DNA from: Chryseobacterium potabilaquae
Lineage (GTDB): Bacteria; Bacteroidota; Bacteroidia; Flavobacteriales; Weeksellaceae
Direction: 5' to 3'
Length of the DNA stretch: 64,000 bases
Assembly: GCF_902728265.1 (NCBI RefSeq)
Contig: NZ_CACVBR010000001.1
Coordinates: 62,001-126,000 of the forward strand
Below are positions 39,775 through 47,774 of this stretch, in pieces; the stretch's first letter is position 1, and each line of letters starts with the position of its first letter. The notes beneath the pieces are model-generated. The model was not told the DNA's origin. It searched no databases and was given only the letters and a program-made list of their open reading frames with translations. A program made the position numbers and the translations under genes.

Positions 39775-42375
39775 CTATTTTTTAATAATGACTTTTGAAG
39801 TAGCATCAAAGCCTAGACCTTTTACTCTAATCATATAAGTTCCATTGATTAATTTCTCTGTAGAGATAGCTTTTTTAGTATCAGGAGATATTTTATCCTC
39901 TGAAGAAAGCAATTTTCCTGACATATCATAGATTTCAACACTTACTTTTCCCATAGTATTGCTTGGGAAATTAATATAAAATTCATTCTTGGCAGGATTT
40001 GGATAGATAGAGATTGTGTTTTTCACTCCTTTCACTTCATCTGTCGCTAATTGCGATAAATTACATTCCGCAGGTACTGCAAAGCTTTCTGTTTGATCAT
40101 TAATATTTGTTTTTGATCCAGCAGATGCATTTACCCCTAATCCTCTTTTTGCAAAAGCACTCCAAATCATACATTTATCAACTCCTGATGTTGCCGCTAG
40201 CTCAGCAGCTAAGATTGCATTTCTTCCATCTACAAATGTAGGATTACACGGTTGCAATTTTAATGCATTTGTAACCAACTGAAGAACCCTTGAACTCCCA
40301 CTTGTCGTATTTGCCATTACATCTGATGAATATCCATATTTCTCTACATACTTCCAATGAAGATCCCATAACATGGTAGCCCAAATAAATCCAATAGCAT
40401 GAACATTGGGTACAGTGGAAGATCCACTACTTAATTCTAATCCATTAGTATCTCCATATGTATAATCGTTGACAGAAAAATTAGGAGAATATGCAGCAGG
40501 CCTTATACCTTTACCATTAGTTCCTTGTCCTATAGCATAAGTCCCTACTCCTCTAGGAACCAAAGCATTATCTCCAGGTTTATTCGTAAGCATTATAGCA
40601 AAGAAATCGGACCACCCCTCTCCCATTTGTTCTTTATCTAAGGATGAATTTAAACAACTATATCCATTTCCTGTTAATCTATTGGATATACCGTGTCCAT
40701 ATTCATGAGTAATAATACCATTATCAAAACTTCCATCTGGCGTAACAGCCGTTGAAGGGTCATTTTTTAAAGTAACATTTACGTTCATATTGGCCGCAAT
40801 TTGACTTTTAATATAAACACCTTCATCATTCGTAATAAGTATGGAAGGAATAGTAATTGTGGCATCACTTCCACCCATACTTATTAATGCTGAGCCATTA
40901 GGTGCATTATTATAAATAATTACGGCTGCTGCTCCTGCATTTTGCGCATTTTTTACCTTTACTGTAAAATTGCAATTTCCTCTTTCTACCAAACCTATTT
41001 TACCGGCTAATGAACCTGCAGGCATTGCTGAGCATCCATCAAATATAGCTGGCAAAACAACGTTTGCAGTAACTCCCGTTCCATTAAGAGGGCTTCCAAA
41101 CTCGGCTTGGCCGATATTAGGATTACGTGGTTGTGCCGAACCTGGTGAATTATAGAAAAACTGTTTATTTATTGTTGACCATAGATACATTTGCATATAC
41201 GGATTACTTCCATCTGGCGGTGTCCCAAAATTAGCATTATTCAATCCTCCACCATCTTGTCCTTCTGCTTCCACATGATCATTTCCTGTACCTCCACTTC
41301 CAAAGTTATTTTTTTGAAAATTTCTTGCTGCTTCCGTAAAGCCAAGTTTATAGAATATATCATGAACTCTATTGTTCATGTAAAATAAATTGGTAATAGC
41401 GGCATTTCGATTAGCCAAAGGAGTAGCATTAATACTATAAGAGAAGTTAAAATTCCTAGATGGGCCTCCATCCGGTGAAGATCCTGGTGAATTCTGATTG
41501 CCAGAGTCTTCATATGCAAATACATTATTTCCTCTTGTAATGGTATAATGATTTGTCCCATCTGAATGCCATCCTTCAGGAGATGCAGAAAGTATCCATG
41601 GGTTACTAAGAATTGATCTGGATCCAAATGTAGGCGCTTCTGTAGGTAAAGCAAACACATTATAGGTAGCGTTATCTGGTGCTAAAAAAGGAATATTTTG
41701 TTCACTTACATAAGATTCTGGAATATTATTTTGATGTTCTTCATCCATGTGCTTGTATGCATCACTATGAAAGTTACAAGATAAATTTAAGTTGACTTTA
41801 TCAATAATAGTTCCATCATTGGCATCTAGTAAGATATTCCATAAGTTTGATGATTTAGGCTCACGAACGATAAATTCGTATGCTAATATTAAATTATTAT
41901 TATCATTATAATAAACTAACCGTTGCTTGGCTACTTGAGTATTTTCCGGTGATGCGTCATAAAATCCTAGTACCGGATATGAGGAAATACTTTCTTTTTG
42001 TAGGTGATCAGCAATCTTTTGAATTGCTGCCACTTTATTCACAGATACATTATTTCCTACGACAGCATTATAATCTTTTAAAAAATTATCAGAATAATAT
42101 ATAATCTCATTATCCTTAATCAGAGCGGATCCGGCAGAATTATAAATAGGAATCCCTTTATACATTTGGTGAAACTTCACCACATTTCCATTTAAGAATT
42201 TTGAAGCATCTCTGTTCTCAATTGCAAAATCCATAAGATCATGTTTCTTATATTCATTGATCATATTTTTTGAAATATAATCTTTAATCATAAGATTTTC
42301 TGAATTCTGAGATAATAAATAAGATGGGAAAATTGCATGTAATGCTACGCAAATAGGTAAGATTAGTTTTTTCAT
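39775..42375 (-). CDS. Secreted M36 (fungalysin-type) metalloprotease with T9SS sorting domain
   Basis: 866 residues. Signal peptide to about residue 22 (SYLLSQ), then an FTP-type propeptide (about 50-200), followed by the M36 catalytic domain. The zinc site is HEYGHGISNRL (about residue 560), with the downstream Glu ligand in GEGWSDFFA. A PA (protease-associated) domain is inserted ahead of the zinc site (about 440-545, GKIGLVERGNCNFTVKVKNAQ). The C-terminus (about 785-866, ISIYPNPAKNEFYI…) is a type A T9SS sorting domain, so the enzyme is exported to the outside or cell surface. It is a single gene with its own terminator. Confidence 0.92.
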   Translation of the reverse strand: MKKLILPICVALHAIFPSYLLSQNSENLMIKDYISKNMINEYKKHDLMDFAIENRDASKFLNGNVVKFHQMYKGIPIYNSAGSALIKDNEIIYYSDNFLKDYNAVVGNNVSVNKVAAIQKIADHLQKESISSYPVLGFYDASPENTQVAKQRLVYYNDNNNLILAYEFIVREPKSSNLWNILLDANDGTIIDKVNLNLSCNFHSDAYKHMDEEHQNNIPESYVSEQNIPFLAPDNATYNVFALPTEAPTFGSRSILSNPWILSASPEGWHSDGTNHYTITRGNNVFAYEDSGNQNSPGSSPDGGPSRNFNFSYSINATPLANRNAAITNLFYMNNRVHDIFYKLGFTEAARNFQKNNFGSGGTGNDHVEAEGQDGGGLNNANFGTPPDGSNPYMQMYLWSTINKQFFYNSPGSAQPRNPNIGQAEFGSPLNGTGVTANVVLPAIFDGCSAMPAGSLAGKIGLVERGNCNFTVKVKNAQNAGAAAVIIYNNAPNGSALISMGGSDATITIPSILITNDEGVYIKSQIAANMNVNVTLKNDPSTAVTPDGSFDNGIITHEYGHGISNRLTGNGYSCLNSSLDKEQMGEGWSDFFAIMLTNKPGDNALVPRGVGTYAIGQGTNGKGIRPAAYSPNFSVNDYTYGDTNGLELSSGSSTVPNVHAIGFIWATMLWDLHWKYVEKYGYSSDVMANTTSGSSRVLQLVTNALKLQPCNPTFVDGRNAILAAELAATSGVDKCMIWSAFAKRGLGVNASAGSKTNINDQTESFAVPAECNLSQLATDEVKGVKNTISIYPNPAKNEFYINFPSNTMGKVSVEIYDMSGKLLSSEDKISPDTKKAISTEKLINGTYMIRVKGLGFDATSKVIIKK

Positions 42376-42789: not shown

Positions 42790-44025
42790 TTAATCTACTT
42801 CAGAGATAACCAATTCGGATTCCATATTTCGTATTTTTTCATAATCTGACAAGATAGAATCACGGTCCCCACACAATGCAACCATCCCAATACTTGTTAG
42901 AAAATCTTCCGTTTTTGGAACCATATCACCATTTTTAAACCATATATGTTTATTAAATAAGGTCGGTAATTGGGATATTTCAGTTAATACTTCAGAGTTT
43001 GAGACAACTCCATTCACTGGTGATTTCAAAAAGACACTCATCATAGGTGTTTTTAGCGTGTACTCTTTTGTCATAACATCTCCATTAACTAATGCCTCTA
43101 CCAGTTTATCTGCCTGGCTGCTACCCGTCGCTTGTCTAGTATAATTTACAGAAGGTCCTCCACACATTCTTGCTGCTGTTTCTATAAGACGAGGTCCTTT
43201 CTCGGTAAGCATAATTTCATTGTGAGCAGCTCCCCAACGAATTCCCATTGCATCTAAACAATTTTTCGTATACTCAAATAATTCTCCATACATTTCTTCA
43301 TCATAAGGAACAAATTCCACATAATCAATAACCGTTTTACGATCATTAAACCACATTTTATTGTATTTAACTAAATGAGCTAAATAATGTTTCCCGTTCG
43401 CAGATACAGTACCCACTGCATATTCAGTCCCTATAGCTTCTTCCTGAACGACAACGGTATCACTAACCACTCCTGTAATTTTAGAAGGTTCTGTTAATAT
43501 ACGGTTGAAAGCTTTTTTCCAATCACCTTTTGCAGGAATGTGAAATACTTTATCACTACCCGCAGAAAGCGGCGGTTTACATATCAATGAAGACTCCTCT
43601 AAATCATTTTCTTTAACCCAATCTAATACTTCATTTTCACATGAAGTATTAATCGTTTTAAGGCATGGAACCCCCGATTCATGTAACGTTTTCTGCATAA
43701 GAGCTTTATGCTTTCTGTTTAATACTTTCCCTGGATCATTAGCAAATTCAGGAGTTAAGATCGAAGCAAGATGCTCAGCTAACGGAACTGCCTTGTCCGT
43801 ACCCGGAAGAATGGCAAGCGGATTATATTCTCTAAGAATATCAACAAGATTGGGCTGATCCATAATAATTTCGGTAAAATCCGAAGTTTGGATTTGCGTC
43901 CCATAACCAATCCTCTCTATAGATCCAATGGTAACAGCTATTGACGGTATTCCCCACTTTTTAAACGTAGGCGCTAATTCTACCCCCGATGAAAGAGGGT
44001 CTATAATAATAACAGGTCTGTTCAT
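42790..44025 (-). CDS. ATP-grasp ligase in isonitrile cluster
   Basis: 411-residue ATP-grasp protein. The N-terminal Rossmann-like pre-grasp domain (VIIIDPLSSG, about residues 4-13) is followed by ATP-binding strands with SLICKPPLSAGSDKV and VVQEEAIGTEYAVG. The Mg-binding segment is HNEIMLTEKGPRLIETAARMCGG (about 278-300). This looks like the L-amino-acid ligase/carnosine-synthase group, which joins a carboxylate to an amine through an acyl phosphate. Last gene of the cluster, 83 bp after the FAD monooxygenase. A likely job is to couple the isonitrile acid or an oxidised product to an amino acid or amine; the actual substrates are unknown. Confidence 0.88.
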   Translation of the reverse strand: MNRPVIIIDPLSSGVELAPTFKKWGIPSIAVTIGSIERIGYGTQIQTSDFTEIIMDQPNLVDILREYNPLAILPGTDKAVPLAEHLASILTPEFANDPGKVLNRKHKALMQKTLHESGVPCLKTINTSCENEVLDWVKENDLEESSLICKPPLSAGSDKVFHIPAKGDWKKAFNRILTEPSKITGVVSDTVVVQEEAIGTEYAVGTVSANGKHYLAHLVKYNKMWFNDRKTVIDYVEFVPYDEEMYGELFEYTKNCLDAMGIRWGAAHNEIMLTEKGPRLIETAARMCGGPSVNYTRQATGSSQADKLVEALVNGDVMTKEYTLKTPMMSVFLKSPVNGVVSNSEVLTEISQLPTLFNKHIWFKNGDMVPKTEDFLTSIGMVALCGDRDSILSDYEKIRNMESELVISEVD

Positions 44026-44108
44026 ATGTTATTTTTTAAATTAAAAAACTCTATTAGTTTAAAGTGACTAAGAAAAAAGAATGTTATTTAGTCTTTTTCT
44101 ATTATTTA

Positions 44109-45566
44109 TTATATGGCATATATTCTAGCTAAATAATCAAATAAGATCGATTCTACATTTTCCAAAGATGTACAAGATTCAATATATGAATCCGGTCTTA
44201 CTAAAATTGCTTTATCTTCATAAGGAGTATTATCTGCCCAAAAGTGTGTGGATTGCTTTTGTGAATAAATCTGAATTATTTTTACAAACTCCGGTATATC
44301 TAAACTCAACTCTATATCTCCAAAAATCAACAACGTGAAATGTGAATAGTTTAAAATCGAATATAATCGTGTTTCAATACTCCCCTTATACATTTTAAAA
44401 TCAAATATCCTAGAACCCGATATTCCCTGATCTCCATAGCGAATTCCCATTCCGGTTATACTTCCAGCATATTTCTGTACTGTTTTTACATAGTCCTCCG
44501 CATGAGTTCCTTTATTCGAATATTTAGTAGAGCGAACAAGATCACCAGAGGCCTTTATAACACTTTGAGCAATTGGCCTACGTTCATCTTCATAAGTTTG
44601 CAAAAGTTCAGTGGGTGCATTAAAGTTAATTACCATATTAAGTTTCCACATAAGATTGAATGCATCCGCAAGGCCTGTATTGAGCCCCTGCCCTCCATTA
44701 ACCGAGTGAATATGACAAGCGTCACCAGCAAGAAATACCTTCTTATTTACATGGAATTTTTCTGCTACAGATTCTTTAACTGAAAATTGCGAAAACCAAA
44801 CAACTTCTTTAAATTTTAGTGTATGAGGTTTGATTGCATGATTAATTTTACCAATAACTTCCTCCATACTAAAATCTTTCTTATCCATTCTTACATAAAA
44901 CCTATCAATTTCTCCTTCACGAGGAATCCAAGCCACGTCTGAAGTATCCGTTTGAAAGGTTATAATTTCTGGTACTTTTGGAAAATCGGTATCTATAATT
45001 CCATCAATTACTGCCCATATGAGTTGGGGACGTATAATATCAAATGGTATATTAAAGAGACTTCGAACTTTTGATCGAGATCCATCCGCACCAATAACAT
45101 AGCTAGACTGAATAATCTCTCCATTTGAAAGACTCGTTACACAACCATCTCTTAAAAACTCAATATTCTCCACTATCGTTAAACGATTAACCCCCGCTTT
45201 TCTCTCTTCAAGAATTTCACTCAACAGCTTTTCAACATAAGATTGGCCAAGCATAAGAAAGTGTTTATGTAAACAGCCTTCCAATTCATTCCACCACGTA
45301 GATTGCCGGGATGTGAATCTTCCATTACTCCATACGGAGCTTGTATTGCAAGGTTTTCCTAAAGGATAAAGTTCTTTAAATAAATTGACCAATTCAAAGA
45401 GTTGCAAAGTACGGGCATTCAAAGCATCAGCCCTACCCACCTCTAAAGGACCTGGAGATTTATCGATAATCATGGTGCGCAAACCACAGATCTGGCCAAG
45501 ATAAGCACACATTAATCCAACAGGTCCGGCTCCAATAATAATTACATCTACTCGTTGAGTACTCAT
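44109..45566 (-). CDS. FAD-dependent monooxygenase (phenol hydroxylase/TfdB-like)
   Basis: 485-residue group A flavoprotein hydroxylase. The N-terminal GAGPVG dinucleotide fold (residue 12), the GADGSRS motif (about residue 159) and GDACHIHSVNGGQGLN (about 282) bind FAD and NAD(P)H. The C-terminal part resembles the thioredoxin-like tail of phenol hydroxylases. Such enzymes hydroxylate aromatic rings. It overlaps the upstream oxygenase gene by 4 bp, a sign of translational coupling, so an aromatic isonitrile intermediate from Tyr or Trp is a reasonable substrate; that is inference. It is not related in sequence type to PvcC, the two-component hydroxylase of the Pseudomonas pathway. Confidence 0.9.
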   Translation of the reverse strand: MSTQRVDVIIIGAGPVGLMCAYLGQICGLRTMIIDKSPGPLEVGRADALNARTLQLFELVNLFKELYPLGKPCNTSSVWSNGRFTSRQSTWWNELEGCLHKHFLMLGQSYVEKLLSEILEERKAGVNRLTIVENIEFLRDGCVTSLSNGEIIQSSYVIGADGSRSKVRSLFNIPFDIIRPQLIWAVIDGIIDTDFPKVPEIITFQTDTSDVAWIPREGEIDRFYVRMDKKDFSMEEVIGKINHAIKPHTLKFKEVVWFSQFSVKESVAEKFHVNKKVFLAGDACHIHSVNGGQGLNTGLADAFNLMWKLNMVINFNAPTELLQTYEDERRPIAQSVIKASGDLVRSTKYSNKGTHAEDYVKTVQKYAGSITGMGIRYGDQGISGSRIFDFKMYKGSIETRLYSILNYSHFTLLIFGDIELSLDIPEFVKIIQIYSQKQSTHFWADNTPYEDKAILVRPDSYIESCTSLENVESILFDYLARIYAI

Positions 45567-46399
45567 TTGTATGATTCTAAACCTGGATTTTTAAAAGCAG
45601 GTGAGCTATTCACATGCACTCTCTGCAAATGACGAGGAGCATCTTTTGCATATACTTCTCGTCCATGCAAAAGAGTAAAATTGTCGGAGATAACAATATC
45701 ATTTTTATGCCATGTATGCGCATAATATGCTTGTGGGCTATATAATGATTCTTTTAACTGGAGTTGAATTTCATCTAATTGATTGTCTTCTACTCCTAAA
45801 AATTCTATAATAGGTGGATTAATAAAATCAGGAATATCTTTTTCCGGCGGCTCATTGTAACGCATAATCAATTGATCTTTATAGGGATGACGGGTAATGA
45901 TCGGTGAAGTTGTAGTACTTTCATAAAATTCCATTTTGCGGGTATAACGCACAGTAATCTTTTTCCATAACTCAATCCATTCTACTGGAGATTGATCAAT
46001 CACTAGAGCTGTATTCGTAAAAGTTGTTCTCCCTCCTTGATCTAAATTCGGAGAGTCTACACAATGAAAAATTTGATATTCCGGAACTTCGGGTCTATAC
46101 ATACCATCCCAATGTAAAGGCACATAATTATTATCAAAAATATGATCTTCAGGATTGTTTTGTCTTACTAGCTCCAGAACTTTTCCAAATGGCCATACAC
46201 TTATTTCTCCCCAACGTTCACAATAGTTTGCAAAATCATGTGCTGAACAAAATGTCCTAAATCCCCGGATGACTACAAGTTTTTCTTCATCTACGTACTT
46301 TTTTAAAAGTTCGGTACTGAGCTTTTCAATATGATAATCTGCATTATCCGCTTCTATTAGGATTCCAAATGGTTTGAGATGGGTAATTTTATATTTCAT
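45563..46399 (-). CDS. Fe(II)/2-oxoglutarate dioxygenase, PvcB/TauD-like
   Basis: 278 residues of the TauD/clavaminate-synthase fold. Iron ligands are visible as HWDG (His and Asp, about residue 97) and the distal His in LLHGRE (about 246). The 2-oxoglutarate-binding Arg follows in RHLQRVHV. Next to an isocyanide synthase it corresponds to PvcB/IsnB, which oxidises isonitrile-Tyr or -Trp, commonly by decarboxylating desaturation to a vinyl isonitrile. It starts 33 bp after the synthase stop and overlaps the FAD monooxygenase by 4 bp. Confidence 0.92.
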   Translation of the reverse strand: MKYKITHLKPFGILIEADNADYHIEKLSTELLKKYVDEEKLVVIRGFRTFCSAHDFANYCERWGEISVWPFGKVLELVRQNNPEDHIFDNNYVPLHWDGMYRPEVPEYQIFHCVDSPNLDQGGRTTFTNTALVIDQSPVEWIELWKKITVRYTRKMEFYESTTTSPIITRHPYKDQLIMRYNEPPEKDIPDFINPPIIEFLGVEDNQLDEIQLQLKESLYSPQAYYAHTWHKNDIVISDNFTLLHGREVYAKDAPRHLQRVHVNSSPAFKNPGLESYK

Positions 46400-46432
46400 T
46401 CTTATTTAAAATTGATCAGGATAAGCATTGAT

Positions 46433-47497
46433 TTACAGTATATAATAATCCGGTTGGGCATTTTCATTATATACTAATTGGGCTTTTAGTTTTTCAGCTT
46501 CAAATCGCTTGACAAACATAATTTTGCCCTTTATATTTAAGGCAACCCCATGCCACGGAGTTATTGAACTTTCATTTGACAATTTTATTCCTATTTTTAC
46601 ATCGCCACATGTTTGAGGATGAATGGAGAGTCGTACATGTTCAGGAAAATTTTGGGCGATAAAATCACTCCAGGCATTACTTAATTGGATTACACTATAC
46701 GCTCTTTTTTTAGCATCTTTTTGAATTTCGGTTCTAGATTTTGGCTGTCCCGGATACAGTGAATCTTCAAATAAAAATTTTGTAATACTCCTATACATAC
46801 GGTTAGCTTCTTTATCTTCTCTAGATCCATATTCATTAATACCACGGGAAACCTTTTCTTTTAATAAAGAAATAGGCTTTCCAAAACTTTTCATTAAATC
46901 ATGCCTCATACTCTCAAAATCATCTCCTCCATACAACTGATCTAAATGAAATGTTGATATATATGTAAGTTCAAGCTTTCTAATTATTGAATCCAACTCC
47001 TTTTGATAGGAGGTAATATCCGAATCTTTCATTCCTATCACATTACTGAATACCCTACCATCTGAGCATATCAATATGCGCGCTCCTGGAGAGTATATTT
47101 TTTGTATGGATTTACATAAATCATTTAGAAATTGTAATGAATATCGTTCTGCCATATCCGGCAATGGTCCTAAGACTTTTTGAGGATTAGGAGATTTACC
47201 CGGAAATGCAGGTAATACAAACAAAATAGGTTCGCTCTTTTCTATCGAATTGATAATCTTGGAAATGTGAGGTTCATAACAACTATTACAGGGTATATTA
47301 CAGTATATGGACTCATCCTCTTTTGTAATACGAAACTGCATAACATTTGCCAGAATATCATATGCTATATCACGCACTAATTTTTTATTTATAGAGCATG
47401 TATTATGTGTTATTTTTTTGTTTAGCATATAAGGGTTTTGATTTTGGGTATTTACAATTCCAAATAGTACATAGAAGTATTGACTATTTACCAACAT
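46433..47497 (-). CDS. Isocyanide synthase, PvcA/IsnA (Dit1) family
   Basis: 354 residues from the first ATG; an internal ATG at 47428 (MLNKKITHN) would give 331 and may be the true start, since the extra 23 residues look unlike the family. These enzymes convert the alpha-amino group of an amino acid to an isonitrile, taking the carbon from ribulose-5-phosphate. Family landmarks: PAFPGKSPNPQKVLGPLPDMAE (about 93-114), ICSDGRVFSNVIG (about 141) and IHPQTCGDVKIGIKL…PWHGVAL near the C-terminus. First gene of the four-gene cluster, so it sets the pathway: isonitrile formation, oxidation, hydroxylation, ligation. The amino-acid substrate is probably Tyr or Trp by family precedent but is not proven. 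Confidence 0.93.
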   Translation of the reverse strand: MLVNSQYFYVLFGIVNTQNQNPYMLNKKITHNTCSINKKLVRDIAYDILANVMQFRITKEDESIYCNIPCNSCYEPHISKIINSIEKSEPILFVLPAFPGKSPNPQKVLGPLPDMAERYSLQFLNDLCKSIQKIYSPGARILICSDGRVFSNVIGMKDSDITSYQKELDSIIRKLELTYISTFHLDQLYGGDDFESMRHDLMKSFGKPISLLKEKVSRGINEYGSREDKEANRMYRSITKFLFEDSLYPGQPKSRTEIQKDAKKRAYSVIQLSNAWSDFIAQNFPEHVRLSIHPQTCGDVKIGIKLSNESSITPWHGVALNIKGKIMFVKRFEAEKLKAQLVYNENAQPDYYIL

Positions 47498-47723
47498 TCT
47501 TCATAGAATGATTTGATAGAAATTAATAGTATATCCATAATTAACTTTCAAAATACTATTATAAACTTTAGCTGATTATTTCTACGTTCCATGGAAACTT
47601 CCCCGTTAGTATATCATGATTTTCTTCTAAATTCAACAGCCAAAAATACATATTTTATATCACTATTTAATGAATTAAAATGCAATAAATAGTATGCAAC
47701 AAGTAACAACTCTTATAAGTGCA

Positions 47724-47753
47724 TAAAAAAAGGCTGTCCTTTTGGGACAGCCT
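47724..47753 (-). terminator. rpsA terminator
   Basis: On the minus strand AGGCTGTCC-CAAAA-GGACAGCCT followed by TTTTTTT, a textbook intrinsic terminator 22 bp after the rpsA stop. It isolates rpsA from the isonitrile cluster downstream. Confidence 0.95.
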
Positions 47754-47774
47754 CGGTTCTTATATAGTTGAAGA

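What the first reader, a model, noticed from the sequence alone, without database searches (positions are those of the whole stretch)
42790..47497. Compact isocyanide cluster with an unusual partner set
Four same-strand genes with short gaps or overlaps encode isocyanide synthase, PvcB/TauD-like oxygenase, a phenol-hydroxylase-type FAD monooxygenase and an ATP-grasp ligase. The first two are established isonitrile enzymes. The pairing with an aromatic flavin hydroxylase of the TfdB type and an amino-acid-ligase-type ATP-grasp enzyme does not match the paerucumarin or rhabduscin sets I know. It predicts a hydroxylated aromatic (vinyl) isonitrile conjugated through an amide bond. Isonitriles chelate metals and inhibit copper enzymes such as phenoloxidase, so a role against hosts or competitors is possible.
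Basis: partly seen in the sequence, partly recalled or inferred. Interest (0 to 1): 0.87.

Follow-up and report, generated by a model that had tools for sequence, protein, structure and literature searches.

The report
Four-gene isonitrile cluster in Chryseobacterium
A Chryseobacterium genome carries a compact four-gene set that should turn tyrosine into a metal-binding isonitrile with a catechol ring; the first three genes recur together in many unrelated bacteria and the fourth in a branch of them, but no product has been tested.

Summary
Four minus-strand genes (42790-47497) encode a PvcA isonitrile synthase, a PvcB Fe/2OG oxygenase, a class A FAD phenol-hydroxylase-like enzyme and an L-amino-acid-ligase-type ATP-grasp enzyme, all under purifying selection (dN/dS 0.07-0.11). 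The set is no local oddity: in the best 80 of 428 named PvcA loci, PvcA-PvcB-FAD occur in this order in 60, with a 4-bp PvcB/FAD overlap in 52; 23 of the 60 also have the ATP-grasp gene. FAD and ATP-grasp orthologues track the synthase: the same 2 of 173 Chryseobacterium genomes; 9 of 9 FAD genomes in Legionellaceae have PvcA, and 8 of 8 high-scoring ATP-grasp genomes have FAD, two of them with the gene elsewhere. It is an insertion: 10 of 10 other Chryseobacterium examined lack it at this site. PvcB has the published residues of the decarboxylating type and the FAD enzyme keeps the phenol-hydroxylase triad, so the likely core is a 3,4-dihydroxyphenyl vinyl isonitrile. A new variant of the known pvc/isn clusters; chemistry untested.

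The parts
46433..47428 (-). pvcA/isnA-like isonitrile synthase (ORF runs to 47497; start probably Met24)
   Evidence: PF05141 4e-73; PvcA structure 3E59 1e-66; 73% identical to the C. angstadtii copy, dN/dS 0.08; 6 of 63 strongly conserved positions differ
45563..46399 (-). pvcB/isnB-like Fe/2OG oxygenase; Arg102 and Asn182 as in the vinyl-isonitrile-forming type
   Evidence: 3EAT 4e-85, 7TCL 2e-77; rule from PMC9467999 applied; HWDG in 81 of 81 rows
44109..45566 (-). class A FAD monooxygenase of phenol-hydroxylase type (NF005531), 4-bp overlap with pvcB
   Evidence: 876 bits vs cut-off 530; Asp47, Arg216, Tyr224 invariant in 58 of 58 rows
42790..44025 (-). ATP-grasp ligase (NF005543), L-amino acid ligase / DdaF-like
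   Evidence: 504 bits vs cut-off 302, DdaF model 7e-43; model pLDDT 78.9, best folds include L-amino acid ligases 3VOT, BacD, RizA
47498..47774 (-). upstream intergenic region: terminator-like repeat behind the S1 gene and presumably the cluster promoter; no LysR gene directly upstream here
   Evidence: sequence read; DNA match to relatives ends just past the S1 gene; upstream gene is S1

Best explanation
A horizontally acquired or at least newly inserted pvc-type isonitrile cluster. Inferred steps: PvcA converts the amine of L-tyrosine (with ribulose 5-phosphate) into isocyano-tyrosine; PvcB removes a benzylic hydrogen and CO2 to give 4-(2-isocyanovinyl)phenol; the FAD enzyme ortho-hydroxylates the phenol to the 3,4-dihydroxy (catechol) isonitrile, doing with a class A flavoenzyme what HpaB-type PvcC does in paerucumarin; the ATP-grasp ligase is a late, optional decorating enzyme, most likely attaching an amino acid (through a catechol oxygen, or on a side branch before decarboxylation). 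By analogy the product would bind copper or iron and inhibit copper enzymes such as phenoloxidase. Shown here: gene content, intactness, conservation, linkage, diagnostic residues, insertion. Not shown: any enzyme activity, substrate, order of steps, product or role.
For: PvcA-PvcB-FAD in order in 60 of the 80 loci examined, 4-bp PvcB/FAD overlap in 52 of 60. Joint presence: PvcA, over-cut-off FAD and over-cut-off ATP-grasp in the same 2 of 173 Chryseobacterium genomes; of 102 Legionellaceae, 9 of 9 FAD genomes have PvcA beside it; of 319 Bdellovibrionota, 20 of 21 FAD genomes have PvcA, 18 beside it. In Legionellaceae ATP-grasp at 499 bits or more occurs only in FAD genomes (8 of 8), including unlinked copies in G569 and G672 (probably one event). 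In Uabimicrobium an MFS/ATP-grasp pair lies apart from pvcABF. FAD and ATP-grasp are one 900-aa ORF in L. steigerwaltii. PvcB type residues (rule). Phenol-hydroxylase triad 58 of 58. DOPA-dioxygenase-family gene beside 3 of 60 clusters. Empty site in 10 of 10 relatives.
Against: No biochemical data. The PvcB rule is a correlation: its authors' single mutants did not change the product. Window and C. angstadtii PvcA both differ at Arg57, Asp152, Trp311 and Leu328, each conserved in at least 57 of 58 other FAD-bearing loci, so their substrate may differ. ATP-grasp enzymes of this kind are known for amides, and the predicted core has neither partner group. 37 of 60 loci have no ATP-grasp gene beside the cluster. 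Five Legionellaceae genomes have only lower-scoring homologues (268-363 bits) without FAD, and G679 has a second copy at 384 bits; G587 has one at 230 bits. Of 21 Bdellovibrionota FAD genomes, G847 has no PvcA match (FAD with part of PvcB), and G955 keeps a partial FAD plus the ligase about 2 Mb from a different PvcAB pair. The window has neither the LysR nor the MFS gene seen in part of the relatives.
Confidence: 0.62

Rival explanations
1. One reading: the carboxylate is kept, because PvcB makes isocyanoacrylate or because the ATP-grasp enzyme amidates isocyano-tyrosine first, giving an isocyano-acrylamide or dipeptide conjugate.
For: The ATP-grasp enzyme is of the DdaF / L-amino acid ligase kind, whose characterized members make amides (PMC12568646, passages). 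The PvcB residue rule is not proven by mutation.
Against: All 23 ATP-grasp loci have PvcB with Arg at the first position and 21 have Asn at the second, as in decarboxylating enzymes; the Cys variant (11 loci) never goes with ATP-grasp. The Arg aligned with the PIsnB carboxylate anchor Arg265 is present in at least 69 of 81 PvcB rows (six commonest motif forms listed), the window included.
Confidence: 0.2
2. A paerucumarin-like isocyano-coumarin pathway in which the FAD enzyme simply replaces PvcC.
For: Same gene order as pvcABC; a LysR gene lies directly upstream and divergent in 22 of 60 related loci, and PtxR, the activator of pvc, is LysR (PMC3639982, passages).
Against: PvcB is not of the Leu/Cys type and the gene in the PvcD position is an ATP-grasp ligase. 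Loci with an HpaB gene directly after PvcB exist as a separate kind, for example L024.
Confidence: 0.07
3. The ATP-grasp gene is a neighbour with its own role (for example a dipeptide), not part of the isonitrile pathway.
For: 37 of 60 pvcABF loci lack it beside the cluster; 15 of 28 pvcABF genomes tested have no match at E 1e-40.
Against: In Legionellaceae the high-scoring orthologue follows pvcABF even when unlinked; it is fused to FAD once; remnants in G632 and G955 still show FAD followed by ATP-grasp sequence.
Confidence: 0.08

Closest known systems
Paerucumarin pvcABCD cluster, Pseudomonas aeruginosa
   Same: PvcA and PvcB homologues in the same order followed by an aromatic hydroxylase; part of the relatives have a divergent LysR gene, and pvc has a LysR activator
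   Different: Hydroxylase is class A FAD (PF01494) instead of HpaB-type PvcC (recalled); ATP-grasp in the fourth place; PvcB has decarboxylating-type residues
Rhabduscin isnAB-GT cluster, Xenorhabdus/Photorhabdus
   Same: PvcB type predicted to give the same vinyl isonitrile phenol
   Different: No glycosyltransferase among the genes scanned; extra hydroxylase and ligase
Legionella isnAB cluster of PMC5126622 (passages read)
   Same: isnAB in Legionella
   Different: That cluster is reported with a helix-turn-helix protein and a cytochrome P450; here FAD is in 9 and the high-scoring ligase in 8 of 102 Legionellaceae genomes, against 26 with PvcA
DdaF dapdiamide synthetase / L-amino acid ligases
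   Same: ATP-grasp sequence and fold
   Different: Only 147 bits to the DdaF model (cut-off 840)
Phenol 2-monooxygenase (1PN0) and VibO (7YJ0)
   Same: FAD-binding fold family, conserved Asp/Arg/Tyr set
   Different: 485 aa against about 650-665; falls in its own family NF005531

Membership tests
Isonitrile synthase PvcA/IsnA (PF05141) | Pfam match over cut-off and conserved core | tested here: met
   247 bits vs 26.4; 57 of 63 strongly conserved positions kept
Isonitrile synthase PvcA/IsnA (PF05141) | Makes isonitrile from Tyr or Trp and ribulose 5-phosphate | not testable with these tools
   needs an enzyme assay
L-tyrosine isonitrile synthase equivalog NF045653 | score over curated cut-off | tested here: not met
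   268 of 600 bits
PIsnB-type (vinyl isonitrile) PvcB | Lys/Arg at PIsnB K107 and Asn/His at N188 | tested here: met
   Arg102 and Asn182 (rule read)
PvcB-type (isocyanoacrylate) PvcB | Leu and Cys at those positions | tested here: not met
Class A phenol hydroxylase | GxGxxG, DG, GD motifs and catalytic Asp/Arg/Tyr (roles recalled) | tested here: met
   the six residues tested are invariant in 58 of 58 rows
Class A phenol hydroxylase | Hydroxylates a phenol next to its OH | not testable with these tools
   needs an enzyme assay
NCBIfam NF005531 | score over curated cut-off | tested here: met
   876 vs 530 bits
NCBIfam NF005543 ATP-grasp | score over curated cut-off | tested here: met
   504 vs 302 bits
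Dapdiamide synthase DdaF | score over curated cut-off | tested here: not met
   147 vs 840 bits
Paerucumarin (pvcABCD) cluster | HpaB-type PvcC (recalled) after pvcAB | tested here: not met
   FAD_binding_3 enzyme instead
Rhabduscin cluster | glycosyltransferase beside isnAB | tested here: not met
   none among the eight genes scanned: the four, one upstream, three downstream; elsewhere in the genome not searched

The most novel reading that the evidence does not exclude
pvcA-pvcB-FAD is the core of a widespread, undescribed family of catechol vinyl isonitriles in bacteria of about six phyla, many of them from predatory or amoeba-associated groups (Legionella, Coxiellaceae, Bdellovibrionota, Uabimicrobium). 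One branch adds an ATP-grasp ligase that aminoacylates the catechol, an unusual ester- or conjugate-forming use of an L-amino acid ligase, sometimes with its own exporter.
Probability: 0.3. Interest if true: 0.78.

Novelty: new variant of a known kind. Interest (0 to 1): 0.57.

Why it matters
Isonitriles bind copper and iron and can disarm copper enzymes (general knowledge; rhabduscin in PMC6386379). A conserved three-gene core recurring in distant phyla, with a hydroxylase that should place a metal-binding catechol on the isonitrile, predicts a kind of metal ligand that I did not find described. The optional ATP-grasp step poses a concrete chemical question: what carboxylate does it activate when the core has lost its own? 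Both can be tested in E. coli with Chryseobacterium genes.

Tried and rejected
Amide conjugation as main reading: lowered because PvcB is of the decarboxylating type. Origin of the cluster outside Bacteroidota: the quick tree puts the Chryseobacterium pair in a 30-row group (20 with the ligase) of Legionella-like and other loci (SH-aLRT 92, not starred), but one Bacteroidota clade is not rejected (p-AU 0.125), so I claim insertion and patchiness, not a donor. Base composition: cluster GC 34.9% against window 34.6%, no signal. Plasmid carriage: FAD homologue at E 1e-60 in 1 of 72,556 plasmid records, a 3.2-Mb Burkholderia replicon; PvcA homologues at E 1e-20 in 13; no mobile vehicle for this set was found. 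Neighbours of ATP-grasp homologues: I looked at the lower-scoring copies of G679, G687, G618 and G647 and both Uabimicrobium copies (not those of G599, G666, G587, G581); by eye, without a family scan, the low scorers share no context. Literature: the listings show no paper describing this gene set; the library lacks most subscription journals, including Brady 2007 (seen only in reference lists), so absence from print is not shown. Ecology (predators, amoeba-associated groups): a pattern in the list, by recalled lifestyles and with no sampling control.

The 499-bit line for ATP-grasp in Legionellaceae was drawn after seeing the gap between 499 and 384 bits; with all 13 matched genomes, 8 of 9 FAD genomes and 5 of 93 others have one (Fisher 5e-8; 4e-11 with the line). 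Fisher values ignore the kinship of genomes.
Full report
What is there. The PvcB and FAD genes overlap by 4 bp. The first 23 residues of the PvcA ORF are not conserved in C. angstadtii, so Met24 is the likely start. C. angstadtii has the same four genes in order; dN/dS is 0.08, 0.07, 0.11 and 0.10 (dS 1.4-2.1, near saturation). The genes are kept by selection.

Where it sits. I fetched this site from 10 other Chryseobacterium genomes (chosen from the relatives). All 10 have the S1 gene followed by the EamA and alpha/beta-hydrolase genes, 8 have the M36 protease gene between, and none has the cluster there. One of the ten is C. angstadtii, where the cluster lies on another contig. So it is an insertion. 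PvcA is found in 2 of 173 genomes of the genus and 2 of 395 drawn from the phylum (the window's own genome is one of the two each time). In a quick tree of the three core proteins (57 loci plus the window) the two Chryseobacterium sets fall in a 30-row group of Legionella-like and other loci, 20 of them with the ligase, and away from the Aquimarina-type set, but a single Bacteroidota clade is not rejected (p-AU 0.125). GC gives no hint.

Is the set conserved? One scan of named genomes gave 428 PvcA relatives; the best 80 by similarity to the window were kept and the other 348 were not seen, so the sample leans towards near relatives. In 60 of the 80, PvcA, PvcB and the FAD gene lie on one strand in this order, with a 4-bp PvcB/FAD overlap in 52; in one of them (L060) an opposite-strand gene stands between PvcB and FAD. 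Of the 20 without FAD most are the lower-ranked, mainly actinobacterial loci. The 57 loci with full-length FAD come from Pseudomonadota, Bdellovibrionota, Bacteroidota, Melainabacteria/Cyanobacteriota, Myxococcota and Planctomycetota, two being unassigned. The ATP-grasp gene is present in 23 of the 60; three of the 60 loci end within 1 kb of the FAD gene. In L. steigerwaltii both are one 900-aa ORF, covering residues 1-478 of FAD and 1-408 of the ligase; a sequencing error or recent loss of a stop is not excluded. A LysR gene lies directly upstream and divergent in 22 of 60 (my count; family named from members), and an MFS gene of one family beside the ligase in 6 of 23. The window has neither beside the cluster. 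A DOPA-dioxygenase-family gene is beside 3 of 60 (one member matched in Pfam, none in NCBIfam).

In Chryseobacterium, scores over the curated cut-offs occur in the same 2 of 173 genomes for FAD (876, 891 bits; next 128) and ATP-grasp (503, 501; next 80); weak matches to both big superfamilies are of course common. In 102 Legionellaceae, PvcA is in 26, FAD in 9, all 9 with PvcA beside it. ATP-grasp matches fall in two sets: 8 genomes at 499 bits or more, all with FAD, and five genomes with only 268-363 bits, none with FAD; G679 also has a second copy at 384 (line drawn after seeing the gap). In G569 (L. quinlivanii) and G672 the high-scoring gene is far from the cluster, in the same context in both, so probably one event. 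The ninth FAD genome, G632, keeps a fragment of the ligase behind FAD. In 319 Bdellovibrionota, PvcA is in 35 and FAD in 21; 20 of the 21 have PvcA, 18 beside it; G766 has them on different contigs; G847 keeps FAD with part of PvcB; G955 keeps part of FAD with the ligase, another PvcAB pair being 2 Mb away. So FAD goes with PvcAB, and in Legionellaceae the ligase goes with FAD, but not the reverse: 15 of 28 pvcABF genomes that I tested (28 of the 60 loci's genomes) have no ligase match at E 1e-40. I did not search the ligase over Bdellovibrionota. This asymmetry marks the ligase as an added, late step.

Chemistry. PMC9467999 (abstract, introduction and passages read) gives a sequence rule: Lys/Arg at PIsnB K107 and Asn/His at N188 for enzymes that decarboxylate to vinyl isonitriles, Leu and Cys for enzymes that keep the carboxylate. 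The window has Arg102 and Asn182. Among 23 ligase loci 21 are Arg/Asn and 2 Arg/Gly; among the 37 other FAD loci 26 are Arg/Asn and 11 Arg/Cys. The authors report that single mutants did not change the product, so this is a forecast. In the FAD enzyme, Asp47, Arg216 and Tyr224 align with phenol hydroxylase residues whose catalytic role I recall (Asp54, Arg281, Tyr289) and are invariant in 58 of 58 rows. The forecast core is a 3,4-dihydroxyphenyl vinyl isonitrile. The ligase model (pLDDT 78.9) is nearest in fold to L-amino acid ligases, followed closely by purine-synthesis ATP-grasp enzymes and biotin carboxylases. With carboxylate and amine both gone, a plain amide cannot be formed on this core; aminoacylation at a catechol oxygen, or amidation of isocyano-tyrosine on a side branch, remain. 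I could not decide between them.

Caveats. Window and C. angstadtii PvcA share four changes at positions otherwise near invariant, Trp311 to Ser among them, so their amino-acid substrate may differ from that of the relatives. Activities and product are inferred from families. Biological role rests on analogy: rhabduscin genes are needed for phenoloxidase inhibition yet not for virulence in Spodoptera (PMC6386379, abstract and passages); paerucumarin affects fimbrial genes and biofilm (PMC3639982, passages).

Known or new? PMC5126622 (passages) reports Legionella isnAB with a helix-turn-helix protein and P450, a different set. The searches named in Tried and rejected listed no description of pvcAB with a class A FAD hydroxylase and ATP-grasp. 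I file it as a new variant of the pvc/isn isonitrile clusters.

Noticed in passing
L155 (Hymenobacter swuensis plasmid pHsw1) 4245-9259; L005 7610-9295: PvcA fused behind a TetR DNA-binding domain in both, and on the plasmid a TauD/PvcB-like enzyme fused to a UbiA prenyltransferase with an FAD oxidoreductase next to it; the plasmid is typed mobilizable. A possible prenylated isonitrile pathway in Bacteroidota.
   Followed up: partly
L045 7953-9839 (Uabimicrobium amorphum): PvcA and PvcB in one 628-aa ORF without the FAD gene; the same genome has a separate pvcABF locus (L038).
   Followed up: partly
L157 3212-5604 (Uabimicrobium amorphum): MFS exporter and ATP-grasp orthologue as an unlinked pair in a genome with pvcABF elsewhere; the MFS is 49-51% identical to those of four ligase-bearing clusters.
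   Followed up: partly
L015, L029, L041, L044, L046, L047, L049, L051, L053, L058: Ten of the 11 loci with the Arg/Cys PvcB signature carry a gene of one SnoaL-like family near FAD and no ATP-grasp gene, suggesting a second product branch; these loci are mostly one clade.
   Followed up: partly
L150 3321-5244; L151 3243-5182: The unlinked ligase of L. quinlivanii and of a related genome follows a PdxH/PhzG-like FMN oxidase gene (family scanned for L151).
   Followed up: no
L149 3302-6598: A cluster remnant in a Bdellovibrionota genome: 3' part of FAD plus ligase overlap a gene for an AAA-domain protein and a smaller one (HNH-looking by eye, no Pfam match), possibly an insertion that replaced pvcAB.
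   Followed up: partly
39775-42375: M36 fungalysin-like protease with PA and Por secretion-tail domains next to the cluster; part of the native synteny and duplicated at this site in two of ten relatives.
   Followed up: partly
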